43,109 bases of DNA from a virus. The translations under genes were made by a program, and so were the position numbers. Location: positions 1 to 43,109 of the IMG/VR virus record IMGVR_UViG_3300041411_000409. One strand, written 5' to 3'. Shown here in pieces: positions 36,063 to 43,109 of the stretch; position 1 is the stretch's first letter; each line of letters opens with the position of its first letter. Under the pieces are notes generated by a model that saw only the letters and a program-made list of their open reading frames with translations, did no database searches and had not been told where the DNA came from.

Positions 36063-36187
36063 AACGGAAATAATAGTATGGCTATTCTTCTAAGCCATTA
36101 AAAATAAAAATTTAGATATATCACTTGCTTAAATTTAAAAAAGAATTTAATTATTTGAATGTAATAAACAAAACATCTGTAAATATT

Positions 36188-37108
36188 ATGATTGAAAATA
36201 AAGACTTTGATACCGTAGACGAATTAATGGATTTTATTTCACCTTGGGGTGAATCACCAAATCTAGACGGATATGTTTTTAGGGGGCATAGTCAAGAAAG
36301 TTTTAAATTAATTCCTAGTGCATTAAGACCAGAAAGTGTTGATAGATTTTGGGAGCTTACATCGTATGGAAGACCAATAGGTCACCAACATGAATTAGAT
36401 TTTTTTCAAATTAGAGCAGAATATTCATTAATAAGAGATTTTTATCGTTTAGCAGATAGGCAGGGTTTGGAGGTTCCAGTTTCATTAAAAATGAGAGAAA
36501 ACCTAGCGCAAGATTTCGACACAATTGCACTTTTTAATTTATCAGATGGTGGAAAATGGATACCTGATGATTTGCTTGAAGCTGTAGCATTAGCTCAACA
36601 TTATGGGATTCCTACGCGATTATTAGATTGGACATATGATATAAATGTTGCTCTATATTTTGCCTTTAATGGGGCAATTGATATGGAAGGTCGACTTGTA
36701 ATTTGGGCTATTAATAAAGAGCATCTATGTTTTCTAAAACCTACTACAAGTAGAATTAATGTAGATTTCATCACCCCACATTATGCTGGAAATCCTAATC
36801 TCTGTGCTCAAAAAGGGCTTTTTACACACTGGCAAATTGATCAAATATCAATGCGAGAACAGATTGAAATTAATATGCAAGGTGGGAACATGCCTTTGGT
36901 TAATAGAAAGTCTCTAGATGAGTTAATTGAGAATAATTTATCTGGTGATGATCAGCAAAATATTTTTAAAAAATTTACCCTTCCTTGCTCGGAAGCAAAG
37001 AAAGGTTGCCAACTATTAATAAAAATGGGGTATGGCCCAGCTAGATTGTTTCCTGGTTATCAAGGTGTTGCTGACCAAGTATTAAACAACCATAGATTGC
37101 ATGGATAG
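36188..37108 (+). CDS. FRG-domain protein
   Basis: The protein has 306 residues from the ATG at 36188 (MIENKDFDTVDELMDFI); an upstream TTG at 36125 is less likely and neither has a strong ribosome site. The FRG motif is clear: DGYVFRGHSQESFKLIPSAL, followed by VALAQHYGIPTRLLDWTYDI and NVALYFAF. The FRG domain occurs in many prophages and defence-associated loci; its activity is unsettled. The gene is more AT-rich than the late genes and stands alone after the late terminator, converging on the next gene across a shared terminator. It looks like an accessory (moron or defence) gene. Confidence 0.78.
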   Translation: MIENKDFDTVDELMDFISPWGESPNLDGYVFRGHSQESFKLIPSALRPESVDRFWELTSYGRPIGHQHELDFFQIRAEYSLIRDFYRLADRQGLEVPVSLKMRENLAQDFDTIALFNLSDGGKWIPDDLLEAVALAQHYGIPTRLLDWTYDINVALYFAFNGAIDMEGRLVIWAINKEHLCFLKPTTSRINVDFITPHYAGNPNLCAQKGLFTHWQIDQISMREQIEINMQGGNMPLVNRKSLDELIENNLSGDDQQNIFKKFTLPCSEAKKGCQLLIKMGYGPARLFPGYQGVADQVLNNHRLHG

Positions 37109-37142: not shown

Positions 37143-37167
37143 AAGCCCTTTGATTAGGGCTTTTTTA
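37143..37167. terminator. Bidirectional terminator between convergent accessory genes
   Basis: AAGCCCT (37143-37149), loop of six and AGGGCTT (37156-37162) are followed by T-rich DNA rightward. The left side is less A-rich, so termination is best rightward. The stem overlaps the end of the minus-strand gene. Confidence 0.65.
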
Positions 37168-38344
37168 CAGTTTCTTTTATATCACTTACCATTTTAGCAA
37201 TGTCAGAAATAGTGGACTTTAAGCCTTCTAGTTCACTGGTTTTTTCATTGCTACATTCCTGTGAGTGATTTGCCCCTCTAAAATAGTTATTAGATAAATC
37301 AATAATTAATTGTTGTCTTTGTTCCTTGTCTAATTCACGCATGTATTCTGGCATTGTTGAAATTTCGAGTACATTCATTTTATAGTGATCATGAAGTTTA
37401 ATAAGTCTATTTCTATCTTTTACAAAATAAGCAATTAATGCTGAGCAGGATAAAATTAAAGAGATAAAAGTTAGGAAATTATAAATATTACTAAAATTAT
37501 CTAAATTAAATAATAAAAATATAATTTTAAAAGCAATAGCAACTATTATGGTTGTGAATAAAACCACTATATATAATTCTAACTTATCAATTCTTGTCTT
37601 TAGCGTTTTTGCTTCTTCAGCATAACCATTGTTCAAATTCTTATTGTTTTCAATAGAAACATTTTCTTTTATTTGTTTTAAAATTTCACTACTATCTTTT
37701 ATTTCTTTAATATTATCTTTTAAATTAATAAGTTCAACAATAGTATCAATTTCACCTATCTTACTTTCGATTCTAAATCTATATTCATCATTTGATTGTG
37801 ATATTAATAAGTTTCTTATTTCTATAAGGATTTTAGAAATCTCATTTTTTTGATTTGGCTTAGCATTTTTATAAGTATCAAGAGCAATATGACTTTCAAT
37901 TGAAATACCTTTTCTTTTAATTTCATCTGTTAGAATCGAAAATTCACTATCGCTCAATGTTTCAATGACTATGTATCGAATGTGATCTAGTATATGGAGG
38001 TAAGTTTTATCTGAATTATTAGCAAGATAGTTAAGTGAGTCTAAAAATTCACTTTCTGGAGCCACTACTGCAATTGACTGATGAATATTAGATAATTGAT
38101 CATATAAAGATTCTAAAATTTGTACTAATTGCCCCAATTCTGGACCGATTAAATTTTTTCTTGTATTTGCTGTACTTACAAATTTACCAAAACCTTCTTT
38201 TATTTCTTCAAATCTATGAAATAGTATACCATCATAAAATTGTTCGTAATCCCTTGAAATATTGATAATTTCAGAATTAACTACACCAATCCATATATTA
38301 AATTTTTCTTCGAGAGTAGCATCAGGTGCAAATTGAGGTTTCAT
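37154..38344 (-). CDS. Two-helix membrane protein with long coiled coil
   Basis: The protein has 396 residues. The N-terminal 250 residues are helical and coiled-coil-like (about 195-250 rich in Lys, Glu, Ile and Asn). Two transmembrane helices follow (about 257-278 and 288-308). The C-terminal part is cytoplasmic and ends in a helix (DIAKMVSDIKETVKK). It is AT-rich with many Ile and Asn. It has no known domain. It lies 40 bp downstream of umuC on the same strand with no terminator visible, so it may be part of the SOS-type operon. A role in defence or membrane stress is speculation. Confidence 0.6.
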   Translation of the reverse strand: MKPQFAPDATLEEKFNIWIGVVNSEIINISRDYEQFYDGILFHRFEEIKEGFGKFVSTANTRKNLIGPELGQLVQILESLYDQLSNIHQSIAVVAPESEFLDSLNYLANNSDKTYLHILDHIRYIVIETLSDSEFSILTDEIKRKGISIESHIALDTYKNAKPNQKNEISKILIEIRNLLISQSNDEYRFRIESKIGEIDTIVELINLKDNIKEIKDSSEILKQIKENVSIENNKNLNNGYAEEAKTLKTRIDKLELYIVVLFTTIIVAIAFKIIFLLFNLDNFSNIYNFLTFISLILSCSALIAYFVKDRNRLIKLHDHYKMNVLEISTMPEYMRELDKEQRQQLIIDLSNNYFRGANHSQECSNEKTSELEGLKSTISDIAKMVSDIKETVKKP

Positions 38345-40194: not shown

Positions 40195-40217
40195 CTTGAA
40201 TTTGTAACATATTCAAG
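40195..40217. promoter_or_regulatory. UmuDAb-type SOS operator upstream of umuDC
   Basis: A perfect inverted repeat with 7-bp arms, CTTGAAT (40195-40201) and ATTCAAG (40211-40217), and spacer TTGTAACAT. Trimmed to TTGAAT-N9-ATTCAA it resembles the 21-bp site described for UmuDAb in Acinetobacter (as recalled: TTGAAA-N9-TTTCAA with TGTAAC in the spacer). It sits directly after the -10 box, 14 bases before the umuD ATG. Confidence 0.75.
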
Positions 40218-40247
40218 ATGATATGCTAGAGCTTAGTTAAATTTCAA
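40218..40247 (-). promoter_or_regulatory. umuDC promoter
   Basis: On the minus strand TTGAAA (40242-40247) and TATCAT (40218-40223) are separated by 18 bases. The expected start point falls in the SOS-type palindrome, so bound repressor would block initiation. Confidence 0.62.
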
Positions 40248-40530
40248 ATTTAAAAACTTGTGGATAAATAATGATTAGTCACAACTTGTCGCACATTATT
40301 GTGCATTTGGTCGGAAATTCTTCAAATTAAATTACTTTGTAAACTTAGAATTATAGGGTGAAAAAAGTAACAGGAAAATTATAACAAAATGAGTCACTTC
40401 AAGAACAACTTGCATCTAAGTTATTGATTTTAGAGTTATCCACAAAGTTATCTATAAATGTTTTTTAACAGCTTTGCTATGCTAAATCCATATGAATCAT
40501 ACAGATAAAAATTAAGTAAAAAGTCAAGAT
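40248..40530. other. Intergenic region with two DnaA boxes
   Basis: No gene is seen. Two perfect consensus DnaA boxes, TTATCCACA, occur in opposite orientation: 40259-40267 (minus) and 40436-40444 (plus). A small palindrome, GCACA-TTAT-TGTGC, lies at 40291-40304. The rest is AT-rich. The boxes may be regulatory sites that tie umuDC or the small RNA to DnaA, or relics of a replicon. Confidence 0.5.
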
Positions 40531-40539
40531 TGATATACT
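40531..40539 (+). promoter_or_regulatory. Extended -10 promoter of the small-peptide transcript
   Basis: TG (40531-40532), one base and TATACT (40534-40539) form an extended -10 element. A -35 (TTAAGT, 40512-40517) is weak, as extended -10 promoters allow. Transcription would start near 40545. Confidence 0.5.
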
Positions 40540-40912
40540 ATAAGAAATCCAATATCTTAGGTACATAGACGCAAAAAGTGTCTATCTCACTAAATTTGAT
40601 ATCTAGTAAGAAATTATTTTGATTCAAGAGGTGAGAATAGGAGCTACCCACCAAGCCGAATTATTCTTCACGGGATTGCATCGACTTGAGGGTAGTAGAA
40701 CTGAAACGCATTGTCTTAGTCCGTAAAGTTAGCTGTAATTTGTAATGTTGGAAGCATTACTTACTACTGCGAACTTAGACTGCGATACGAATCGCTTAGT
40801 TAACAACGGCTGAATATCAGACGCTATTACCGATGACGACTTTCGTTATGCATTAGCTGTATTAAAGCGCAAAAAACGGCACAAGGCAATGTCTCTTTAA
40901 AAGGAGACTGCT

Positions 40913-40996
40913 ATGACGAAGATATTTATCTTCGGCTTAAAATTACTAAGCTTAATTGCTGACGTAGTTCAAGTAGCTGATTTTATTATTCGCTAA
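40913..40996 (+). CDS. 27-residue hydrophobic peptide, type I toxin candidate
   Basis: This ORF encodes 27 residues, beginning MTKIFIFGLKLLSLIADVV and ending DFIIR. It has an excellent ribosome site (AAAAGGAG, seven bases before the ATG). The peptide is an amphipathic hydrophobic helix with basic residues at 3, 10 and 27 and acidic residues at 17 and 23. A small hairpin, GAAGAT-ATTT-ATCTTC, starts right after the ATG (40919-40934). Size and pattern recall TisB (29 residues, SOS-induced, membrane-depolarising). It lies beside umuDC and has a strong terminator. Homology is not claimed. Confidence 0.55.
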   Translation: MTKIFIFGLKLLSLIADVVQVADFIIR

Positions 40997-41028
40997 TGTA
41001 TTTGCTGCTTATTAGTAGCGATATATAA

Positions 41029-41055
41029 ACCGCTGGCTTAGGCTGGCGGTTTTTT
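41029..41055. terminator. Terminator shared by the tiny peptide gene and the SRAP gene
   Basis: ACCGCTGGC (41029-41037) pairs with GCTGGCGGT (41042-41050), with two G-U pairs and loop TTAG, followed by TTTTTT on the plus strand. The minus strand continues into TTTATAT. The SRAP gene stop codon lies in the loop. Confidence 0.75.
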
Positions 41056-41688: not shown

Positions 41689-41913
41689 CTAATCAATACA
41701 TCGAGTATTAATGAACTCAATAATAATAGCTAAGCATTCTTGAGATCCTTCAATTTGTTTTTTAAAATTACTATTTCCTATATGCTCTTCTTGAAAGAAT
41801 TCATCCGCCATTTGCCATGACTTAATAACTTCAATCACGTCTTCTTTGGTCCATTCTTTTGCTAATTTAGATATTTCTTCTTCAGTAAGATTCTTTTTCA
41901 TTTTATTGTCCAT
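41689..41913 (-). CDS. Small hypothetical protein coupled to integrase
   Basis: The protein has 74 residues, is acidic and fully helical (TEEEISKLAKEWTKEDVIEV, ECLAIIIEFINTR). Its ATG overlaps the integrase stop as TAATG, though an inner ATG at 41901 (MKKNLTEEE) is possible. It may be a regulator or a directionality factor, but it is acidic and lacks a visible DNA-binding motif, so no function is assigned. Confidence 0.5.
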   Translation of the reverse strand: MDNKMKKNLTEEEISKLAKEWTKEDVIEVIKSWQMADEFFQEEHIGNSNFKKQIEGSQECLAIIIEFINTRCID

Positions 41914-43109
41914 TAACTTGCCCAGCTATCTACGATATTAGCCCAGTCTTGCAGCATTTTTCGTCTGCTTTCTAGGTATTTTGCATGGTTATATGTAGCT
42001 CTGGTTTTATTTCCATCTGCATGTGCCAATTGCTTTTCAATCCACTTGTCATCGTAATCTTTTTCATTAAGCAAGGTTGATGCAGTAGCACGAAAATCGT
42101 GTGCTGTTACATCTGACAAGCCTATGTAATCAAGCATTTTATTAAGTGTTGTGGCTGAAAGCATTCCGTCTTGATAGATAGCTGGAAAAACATACTCACG
42201 GTTGCCAACAATCTTACGTTGCTCTTGAAGAATATTGAAAACTTGGTCAGACATTGGGACGATGTGAATGCGCTTCTTTTTCATCATCTCTTTTGGGAAT
42301 GTGATTGTTCTTGCTTCAAAATCTACATATTCCCATTTCATGCGACGGATCTCGATAGTTCTTAGCATAGAGTAGAGCATTACTAACCCAGCATTTTTAA
42401 CTGTAGTGGATCCACCGTAGTTGTTTAGTTTATTTCGAAGTTGTACCGCCTCATGTTTTTCCATTGGCCTAGCATGGTCTATTTCAGGACGTTCTACGAC
42501 ATTTTTGACCGCATATGTTGGATCATAGTCAGCTCTTAGTGTAGCGATTGCATAACGCATTACGCCACCAATAAAAGTACGATTTTGGATTGCTGATACT
42601 TCTCCAGTACCATGGTTTTTTTGACGCTTAACTCGTGCAATTGTCTTTTTCATAATTGTCAAAACGTCTGCCGAGGTAACCTCTTTAATATCTTTATCGC
42701 CAATAACTTTTAATATGTCTTTATCAAGAGCTCGCTGAAAAGCCTCTTGATATCTCTCTGATCGATTATTTAATTTTTCTTTTTTGTATTCTGCAGCAAC
42801 ATTTTTAAATAGAACCCTATTGTCATATTCTTCGTGTTTAGCTTTTTTCTGGTTTTCTTTTTCTTCTACTGGATTAATACCATTAGCAACTAATGACTTA
42901 GCCTCATCTCGTTTTGTGCGCGCTTCAGCTAATCCAACAATAGGGTATTCGCCCAAACTCATCATTTGAGTTTTTTTAAGCCACTGAAAACGATAGCGCC
43001 AATACTTCTTACCATTGGGTTTAATTTCAACGCACAAACCGTCGGAATCACCAAGACGATAAAGCTTTTCTTTTGGTTTTGCACTTCTGATTTTTGAGTC
43101 GCTTAACAT
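41913..43109 (-). CDS. int: Tyrosine integrase with DUF4102 N-terminus
   Basis: The protein has 398 residues and is complete, with its ATG at the right window edge. The N-terminal DUF4102 arm-binding domain starts MLSDSKIRSAKPKEKLYRLG. A core-binding domain spans about 95-200. The catalytic domain holds Arg250 (MLRTIE), His337 and Arg340 (AHDFRATAST), His363 (LAHADGN) and nucleophile Tyr373 (ATYNHAKYLE). It inserts and excises the prophage. Integrases of this type normally lie beside one attachment site with their 5' end toward it, so the right junction should be just beyond 43109. Confidence 0.92.
   Translation of the reverse strand: MLSDSKIRSAKPKEKLYRLGDSDGLCVEIKPNGKKYWRYRFQWLKKTQMMSLGEYPIVGLAEARTKRDEAKSLVANGINPVEEKENQKKAKHEEYDNRVLFKNVAAEYKKEKLNNRSERYQEAFQRALDKDILKVIGDKDIKEVTSADVLTIMKKTIARVKRQKNHGTGEVSAIQNRTFIGGVMRYAIATLRADYDPTYAVKNVVERPEIDHARPMEKHEAVQLRNKLNNYGGSTTVKNAGLVMLYSMLRTIEIRRMKWEYVDFEARTITFPKEMMKKKRIHIVPMSDQVFNILQEQRKIVGNREYVFPAIYQDGMLSATTLNKMLDYIGLSDVTAHDFRATASTLLNEKDYDDKWIEKQLAHADGNKTRATYNHAKYLESRRKMLQDWANIVDSWAS

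What the first reader, a model, noticed from the sequence alone, without database searches (positions are those of the whole stretch)
40531..41055. A 27-residue hydrophobic peptide with a long leader beside umuDC: possible SOS-linked type I toxin
An ORF too small for routine annotation (40913-40996) has a near-ideal ribosome site, an amphipathic hydrophobic helix and its own terminator, and follows an extended -10 promoter and about 370 bases of leader without a credible gene. This matches the form of TisB-like toxins, which are made in the SOS response and have structured leaders. The neighbours are umuDC with an SOS-type operator and an SRAP gene. No antisense RNA was located by eye.
Basis: partly seen in the sequence, partly recalled or inferred. 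Interest (0 to 1): 0.75.

Follow-up and report, generated by a model that had tools for sequence, protein, structure and literature searches.

The report
Prophage toxin-like peptide on borrowed nrdA promoter
Some Acinetobacter prophages and one plasmid carry a small unannotated gene for a membrane-seeking peptide, locked inside a folded mRNA, probably held down by an antisense RNA, and driven by a copy of the host's own DNA-damage-induced nrdA promoter; it looks like a new family of self-poisoning (type I toxin) modules.

Summary
The 27-codon ORF at 40913-40996 belongs to a conserved, apparently Acinetobacter-restricted peptide family: about 27 copies, at least five sequence types, invariant A-D-x-x-Q-x-A-D, pN/pS 0.32. 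It sits at the 3' end of a structured transcript with its own terminator. In nearly all types, despite different sequences, the Shine-Dalgarno lies in a hairpin just before the start codon and a second hairpin follows it. The module is portable: between umuD and SRAP in many prophages, in an unrelated prophage, and on an A. piscicola plasmid.

Two corrections. First, the promoter is not SOS-type. Bases 40418-40558 are an 84% copy of the host nrdA promoter, with homology ending at the last base of the -10. In A. baylyi nrdA is induced 7-fold by mitomycin C without RecA or UmuDAb. No UmuDAb-like box lies at the element. Second, there is an antisense candidate: an invariant -35/-10 pair on the minus strand (40889-40861), at the same relative place in three or four leader types but not in type B.

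Best reading: a new type I-like toxin module, resembling TisB/IstR in logic but failing the TisB family model. Toxicity, both transcripts and the antitoxin remain untested.

The parts
40418..40558 (+). promoter region homologous to the chromosomal nrdA promoter of Acinetobacter, including a DnaA-box-like TTATCCACA (40436-40444)
   Evidence: 84% identity over 141 bp to the region upstream of nrdA, ending at the last base of the -10; identity drops to 9-42% beyond
40530..40558 (+). core promoter: -35 TTGATA (40530-40535), 17 nt, -10 TATCTT (40553-40558); transcript start expected near 40565
   Evidence: shared with nrdA
40565..41055 (+). predicted toxin mRNA with about 350-nt structured leader
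   Evidence: fold z -5.35; type A consensus fold with 25 of 91 pairs showing a change on both sides; ends inferred from promoter and terminator
40643..40696 (+). large leader hairpin, present at the equivalent place in every leader type with different sequence
   Evidence: z -2.6
40708..40718 (+). 5' arm of a predicted long-range helix (GCATTG...) with the region just upstream of the Shine-Dalgarno hairpin (about 40881-40892)
   Evidence: columns 158-168 with 339-349; mostly invariant, so little covariation support
40861..40889 (-). candidate antisense promoter: -35 TTGCCT (40889-40884), 17 nt, -10 TTTAAT (40866-40861); antisense RNA would start near 40854 and cover the leader
   Evidence: 12 of 12 hexamer bases invariant in ten type A sequences, spacer 10 of 17, block enrichment P 1.7e-6; same relative place in types C and D, weaker in E, not in B
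40891..40908 (+). hairpin that sequesters the Shine-Dalgarno (AAGGAG 40901-40906)
40913..40996 (+). ORF of the 27-aa amphipathic peptide MTKIFIFGLKLLSLIADVVQVADFIIR
   Evidence: family alignment A1; pN/pS 0.32; genome hits E 3e-10 to 9e-15
40917..40934 (+). hairpin in the first codons (CGAAGATATTTATCTTCG)
   Evidence: a hairpin at this place is kept in all types by different sequences
41027..41052 (+). intrinsic terminator of the module
   Evidence: z -5.1; kept in the type A and B alignments with changes on both sides

Best explanation
The element is a portable type I-like toxin module. A promoter copied from the host's nrdAB operon makes a roughly 490-nt mRNA, expected to rise when replication is blocked or DNA is damaged. 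The mRNA is born translationally closed, with the Shine-Dalgarno and first codons each in a hairpin, so ribosomes probably have to load in the long leader. An antisense RNA from the minus strand starts about 60 nt upstream of the ORF, covers the leader and keeps it silent. When sense transcription outruns the antisense RNA, a 26-30 residue amphipathic peptide is made that inserts into the inner membrane and stops growth or helps kill the cell, to the benefit of the prophage or plasmid (defence, induction or maintenance). Shown by sequence: conserved coding peptide, nrdA-type promoter, structured initiation region, terminator, antisense promoter motif, mobility. Inferred: both transcripts, standby loading, antisense repression, toxicity, and the benefit.
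For: Peptide conserved as protein: invariant A-D-Q-A-D, silent-site divergence, pN/pS 0.32 against 0.55 in the +1 frame. Physical properties match TisB: net charge +1, helical moment 0.53 vs 0.50, mean hydrophobicity 0.44 vs 0.47. Hairpins before and after the start codon recur across types with unrelated sequences, Fisher P about 6e-6 and 1e-6 against shuffles, 6e-5 against synonymous recoding. Structured leader and terminator. Antisense promoter motif invariant and at the same relative place in several types. Promoter copied from nrdA, which is induced 7.0-fold by mitomycin C in A. baylyi without recA or umuDAb (PMC3978071). Variable cargo site shared with AbiH, PIN_8 and caspase-like genes, plus a copy on a plasmid and in another prophage. 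The logic (sequestered site, upstream loading, antisense RNA) is that of tisB and timP (PMC7708055, PMC11228461).
Against: No transcript, translation or toxicity data. Type B leaders lack a convincing antisense promoter and no clear intrinsic terminator for an antisense RNA was found in type A. A single type's antisense score is not exceptional on its own (P 0.02-0.7 for any site in the leader). The synonymous-recoding test is not significant for types D and E alone, and the upstream hairpin is weak in L028 and L018. Similarity to TisB by alignment is marginal (P 0.03-0.07 in most, none in type B) and the Pfam TisB model does not match.
Confidence: 0.62

Rival explanations
1. A small damage-induced membrane peptide of the prophage that is not a toxin-antitoxin pair: for example a lysis helper, a superinfection-exclusion peptide or a membrane modulator. 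The leader structure alone limits its translation and the antisense motif is not used.
For: No antisense RNA is proven and type B lacks a clear antisense promoter; in one carrier prophage the element lies next to lysozyme-like and Rz-like genes (L105, L133); the hokW-sokW pair of prophage Sp5 is reported to help phage release after mitomycin C (PMC8621323).
Against: The antisense hexamers are the conserved part while their spacer is freer (12 of 12 vs 10 of 17), at the same relative place in unrelated leaders. A plasmid copy argues against a purely lytic role.
Confidence: 0.2
2. A functional structured RNA (regulator, sponge or antisense target) in which the peptide is a minor or relic product.
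For: Long, strongly folded leader with covarying pairs; leader longer than the ORF.
Against: The peptide C-terminal half is the only part conserved in sequence across all types, with silent-site substitutions; leaders differ almost completely between types, the reverse of what a functional RNA core would show.
Confidence: 0.08
3. TisB-like toxin of the SOS (UmuDAb/RecA) regulon.
For: Neighbour umuDC has an exact TTGAA-N11-TTCAA operator (40196-40216); the module has TisB-like form.
Against: No such operator at the element; the promoter is of nrdA type and nrdA induction needs neither recA nor umuDAb in A. baylyi; copies exist away from umuDC.
Confidence: 0.06
4. The conserved frame just upstream (D-D-x-R-Y-A-x-x-x-L-K-R-K-x-W-H-K-A-M) is a real mok-like coupled ORF, and its coding function rather than an antisense promoter explains the conserved block at about 40843-40891.
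For: Frame open and similar in all type A sequences, ending inside the Shine-Dalgarno hairpin in several of them; hok/mok works that way.
Against: No ATG in that frame upstream of the block in the sequences read; absent from leader types B, C, D and E; the invariant bases coincide with the antisense -10 and -35.
Confidence: 0.04

Closest known systems
tisB/istR-1 (type I toxin-antitoxin, E. coli)
   Same: 27-29 aa amphipathic hydrophobic peptide of the same charge and helical moment with a Q-x-x-D-x-x-x-K/R pattern; long structured leader; sequestered ribosome site; damage-linked expression; antisense control expected far upstream of the ribosome site
   Different: not a match to the Pfam TisB model; no LexA or UmuDAb box; nrdA-type promoter; candidate antisense promoter lies inside the leader rather than in a divergent gene; mobile in prophages and a plasmid
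dinQ/agrB (SOS-regulated type I system, E. coli)
   Same: 27-aa single membrane peptide, several structured transcripts, antisense RNA control (PMC3567139 abstract)
   Different: no sequence similarity above shuffles; separate sRNA genes; SOS control
hokW-sokW of prophage Sp5
   Same: prophage-borne, type I logic, response to mitomycin C, antisense RNA antitoxin
   Different: unrelated toxin (own knowledge: Hok proteins are about twice as long and use a mok frame); response reported as RecA-dependent (PMC8621323)
timP/TimR
   Same: mRNA closed by its own structure, translation relies on elements far upstream of the ribosome site, antitoxin acts there (PMC11228461)
   Different: enterobacterial, no sequence relation known to me
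nrdAB promoter of Acinetobacter
   Same: 141 bp up to and including the -10, 84% identical
   Different: drives ribonucleotide reductase in the chromosome; here drives the module

Membership tests
type I toxin-antitoxin system | small hydrophobic, membrane-type peptide encoded and conserved as protein | tested here: met
type I toxin-antitoxin system | toxin mRNA with inhibitory structure over the ribosome site | tested here: met
   prediction only:
type I toxin-antitoxin system | antisense RNA to the toxin mRNA | tested here: inconclusive
   promoter motif invariant and placed alike in types A, C, D, weak in E, absent in B; no terminator in A; no transcript data
type I toxin-antitoxin system | peptide toxic when made, neutralised by the RNA | not testable with these tools
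   needs expression assay
TisB family (PF13939) | match to the family model | tested here: not met
   E. coli TisB matches at 2.5e-9; none of 14 members match
TisB/IstR system | SOS (LexA-type or, in Acinetobacter, UmuDAb-type) operator at the toxin promoter | tested here: not met
   no TTGAA-N11-TTCAA at 40420-40560 with up to 1 mismatch
known Rfam RNA family | match above gathering score | tested here: not met
nrdA-type promoter | homology to the chromosomal nrdA promoter through the -10 | tested here: met

The most novel reading that the evidence does not exclude
A previously undescribed, Acinetobacter-specific type I toxin family whose carriers keep a copy of the host's own nrdA promoter, following the host's promoter subtype, so that the toxin fires on replication stress or dNTP demand outside the SOS circuit. 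Leader/antisense and peptide parts reassort as modules at a prophage site shared with anti-phage genes, which points to a role in phage defence or prophage competition.
Probability: 0.42. Interest if true: 0.78.

Novelty: new variant of a known kind. Interest (0 to 1): 0.62.

Why it matters
If true, it would be a type I toxin family in Acinetobacter, for which my searches of an open-access library found none described, and a case of a mobile element carrying a copy of a host replication-stress promoter to control a toxin. It offers a simple test of how damage responses that bypass RecA and UmuDAb are wired in a genus without LexA, and a set of natural leader/peptide combinations for studying antisense specificity and structure-gated translation.

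Tried and rejected
Rfam, Pfam, NCBIfam and PHROGs gave no family for the window peptide; one PHROG hit at 8e-4 for another member (phrog_37266, unknown function) was not followed to a conclusion. DNA search with the window's transcript finds only two of 176 Acinetobacter genomes, because leaders diverge; the peptide profile finds six. Profile hits with E 0.01-0.05 cover only part of the peptide and were treated as chance. Pattern hits L118, L119, L121, L156, L157, L159 are unrelated proteins. Inverted repeats between the upstream region and the leader gave nothing beyond short chance pairs, so an IstR-like divergent RNA is not supported. The upstream frame ...LKRKTWHKAM was considered as a coupled ORF and set aside. 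Searches in the rest of the family (299 genomes) and class (369 genomes) found only Acinetobacter carriers already known. No structure prediction was run: the window peptide is below the 30-residue minimum and a single helix would add little.

Full report
What was checked. The ORF 40913-40996 is present as described, with AAGGAG six bases before the ATG and an intrinsic terminator at 41027-41052. The window is an IMG/VR virus record that ends in a tyrosine integrase (41913-43109), with close relatives in Acinetobacter prophages. The 521-nt transcript region folds 30 kcal/mol below its shuffles (z -5.35). No Rfam family matches.

Relatives. SRAP relatives and DNA patterns in the peptide gave loci in which the same place could be read. 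Between the SRAP stop and the umuD promoter 58 of 92 loci have only a short gap and 34 carry an insert; by my reading 16 of these inserts are the present module, and others include genes for AbiH (PF14253), a PIN_8 protein (PF18476) and a caspase-like protein. The module thus lies in a cargo site. It also occurs near lysozyme-like and Rz-like genes and, in L105, an integrase of a different prophage (L105, L133), and on the 184-kb A. piscicola plasmid pYH12207-1 (NZ_CP048660.1). In 176 Acinetobacter species genomes a peptide profile finds six carriers (E 3e-10 to 9e-15); 299 genomes drawn from the family and 369 from the class add none.

The peptide. Fourteen distinct peptides of 26-30 residues align with invariant A16, D17, Q20, A22, D23 and a common end close to ADLLQVADFIIR. 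Over 15 codons of the conserved half, pS is 0.60 and pN 0.19 (ratio 0.32; +1 frame 0.55), and between distant types silent sites are near saturation while pN stays at 0.13-0.2. It is therefore a selected coding sequence. Its length, charge, hydrophobicity and helical moment are close to those of E. coli TisB, but alignment to TisB is only marginal and the Pfam TisB model, which finds TisB itself at 2.5e-9, does not find it. It works like, but is not shown to be, a TisB relative. The TisB and DinQ sequences used here were entered from memory; the TisB one is confirmed by the Pfam match.

The initiation region. In the sequence types the Shine-Dalgarno lies in a hairpin just before the start codon and a second hairpin occupies the first codons, built from different sequences: GTCTCTTTAAAAGGAGAC and CGAAGATATTTATCTTCG in the window, GCTCTTTTAAGGAGAGC in L023 and L027, AGCAACGCT...AGCGTTGCT in L012, ATGCCCTAATTTTGGGGGCAT and GAATACAATCGTATTC in L136, TTAAGACTTAAAGTCTTGA in type B. 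Combined over seven types the hairpins exceed shuffles with Fisher P near 1e-6 (start) and 6e-6 (upstream), and synonymous recodings with P 6e-5; single types are uneven, and the upstream hairpin is weak in L028 and L018. The N-terminal residues change with the hairpin while the C-terminal half is held as protein. This is what a translation-gated toxin mRNA would show.

Leader. The leaders fall into several types (A: window and nine others; B: L087 and others; C: L018, L012; D: L136; E: L105, L133). All contain a large hairpin of different sequence at an equivalent place. The type A consensus has 91 pairs, 25 with changes on both sides, and a long-range helix between GCATTG near 40708 and CAATGC just before the Shine-Dalgarno hairpin. 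Within type A nearly identical leaders carry different peptides (L024 and L102), and different leaders carry the same peptide type, so leader and peptide have been exchanged.

Promoter. Bases 40418-40558 are 84% identical to the region upstream of chromosomal nrdA; the match ends at the last base of the -10 TATCTT and identity then falls to 9-42%. A DnaA-box-like TTATCCACA and the block around the -35 (GTCAAGATTGAT) are the best kept parts. The copy in L018 matches the nrdA promoter of its own genome (86%) and not that of A. nosocomialis (66%), whereas the other copies match the A. nosocomialis type (77-84%) better than the L018-host type (60-71%): the promoter follows the host subtype. In A. 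baylyi nrdA rises 7.0-fold after mitomycin C without recA or umuDAb (PMC3978071; also PMC7273328). The UmuDAb-like operator of this region is at 40196-40216, at umuD, and none lies at the element. That the captured promoter behaves like nrdA is an inference.

Antisense. A scan of both strands of 24 elements found one recurrent minus-strand site about 91 bases before the conserved Ala-Asp codons: TTGCCT-17-TTTAAT in all type A sequences, TTGCTA-18-TACATT with an extended -10 in type C, TTGATA-17-TTTAAT in type D and a weaker one in type E. Against shuffles the chance of such a score at that place is 0.003-0.013 for type A, below 0.004 for C, 0.017 for D and about 0.06 for E; type B has none there. 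These probabilities were computed after the site was seen, and the scoring matrix is an approximation of the E. coli one. In type A all 12 hexamer bases are invariant, against 10 of 17 spacer bases and 35% of the leader (block P 1.7e-6). This also explains the conserved frame ...LKRKTWHKAM, which has no ATG, upstream of the ORF. An RNA from this site would start near 40854 and cover the leader. Type C has a terminator-like hairpin about 130 nt downstream; type A has none.

Mechanism and verdict. The anatomy fits a type I system: damage-linked promoter, closed mRNA, antisense RNA over the leader, amphipathic peptide, terminator. tisB and timP are precedents for a sequestered site fed from far upstream (PMC7708055, PMC11228461), and hokW-sokW for a prophage-borne pair that acts after mitomycin C (PMC8621323). 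The defining functional tests, toxicity and neutralisation, could not be made here. I rate it a new variant of a known kind.

Noticed in passing
window 40217-41040 and the equivalent gap in L005, L007, L061, L088, L096, L097, L098: The umuD-SRAP gap of these Acinetobacter prophages is a cargo site: besides the module it holds AbiH (PF14253), PIN_8 (PF18476), caspase-like and small secreted or membrane proteins.
   Followed up: partly
window 36125-37105: FRG-domain protein matching PADLOC candidate defence family PDC-S15 (E 1e-34), beyond umuC and the 396-aa gene; a second possible defence cargo of this prophage.
   Followed up: partly
window 37157-38344: 396-aa predicted membrane protein next to umuC with no Pfam or PADLOC match; the L016 insert in the umuD-SRAP gap encodes a 334-aa protein that looks similar in form (two membrane helices, coiled coil) and also has no Pfam match.
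   Followed up: no
L024 vs L102; L027, L028, L078: Nearly identical leaders joined to different peptides, with the switch close to the conserved antisense promoter block: modular exchange.
   Followed up: partly
L136 (A. piscicola plasmid NZ_CP048660.1): The leader hairpin loop reads as nearly the reverse complement of the type B/C loop (TCCTCGACTAAAATTTCGA vs TCGAAATTTTGGTCGAGGA), as if sense and antisense roles of the loop were swapped.
   Followed up: no
window 40436-40444 and 40258-40267: TTATCCACA, DnaA-box-like, kept in the nrdA-type promoters of the module; a second inverted copy (TTGTGGATAA) lies near the umuD promoter.
   Followed up: no
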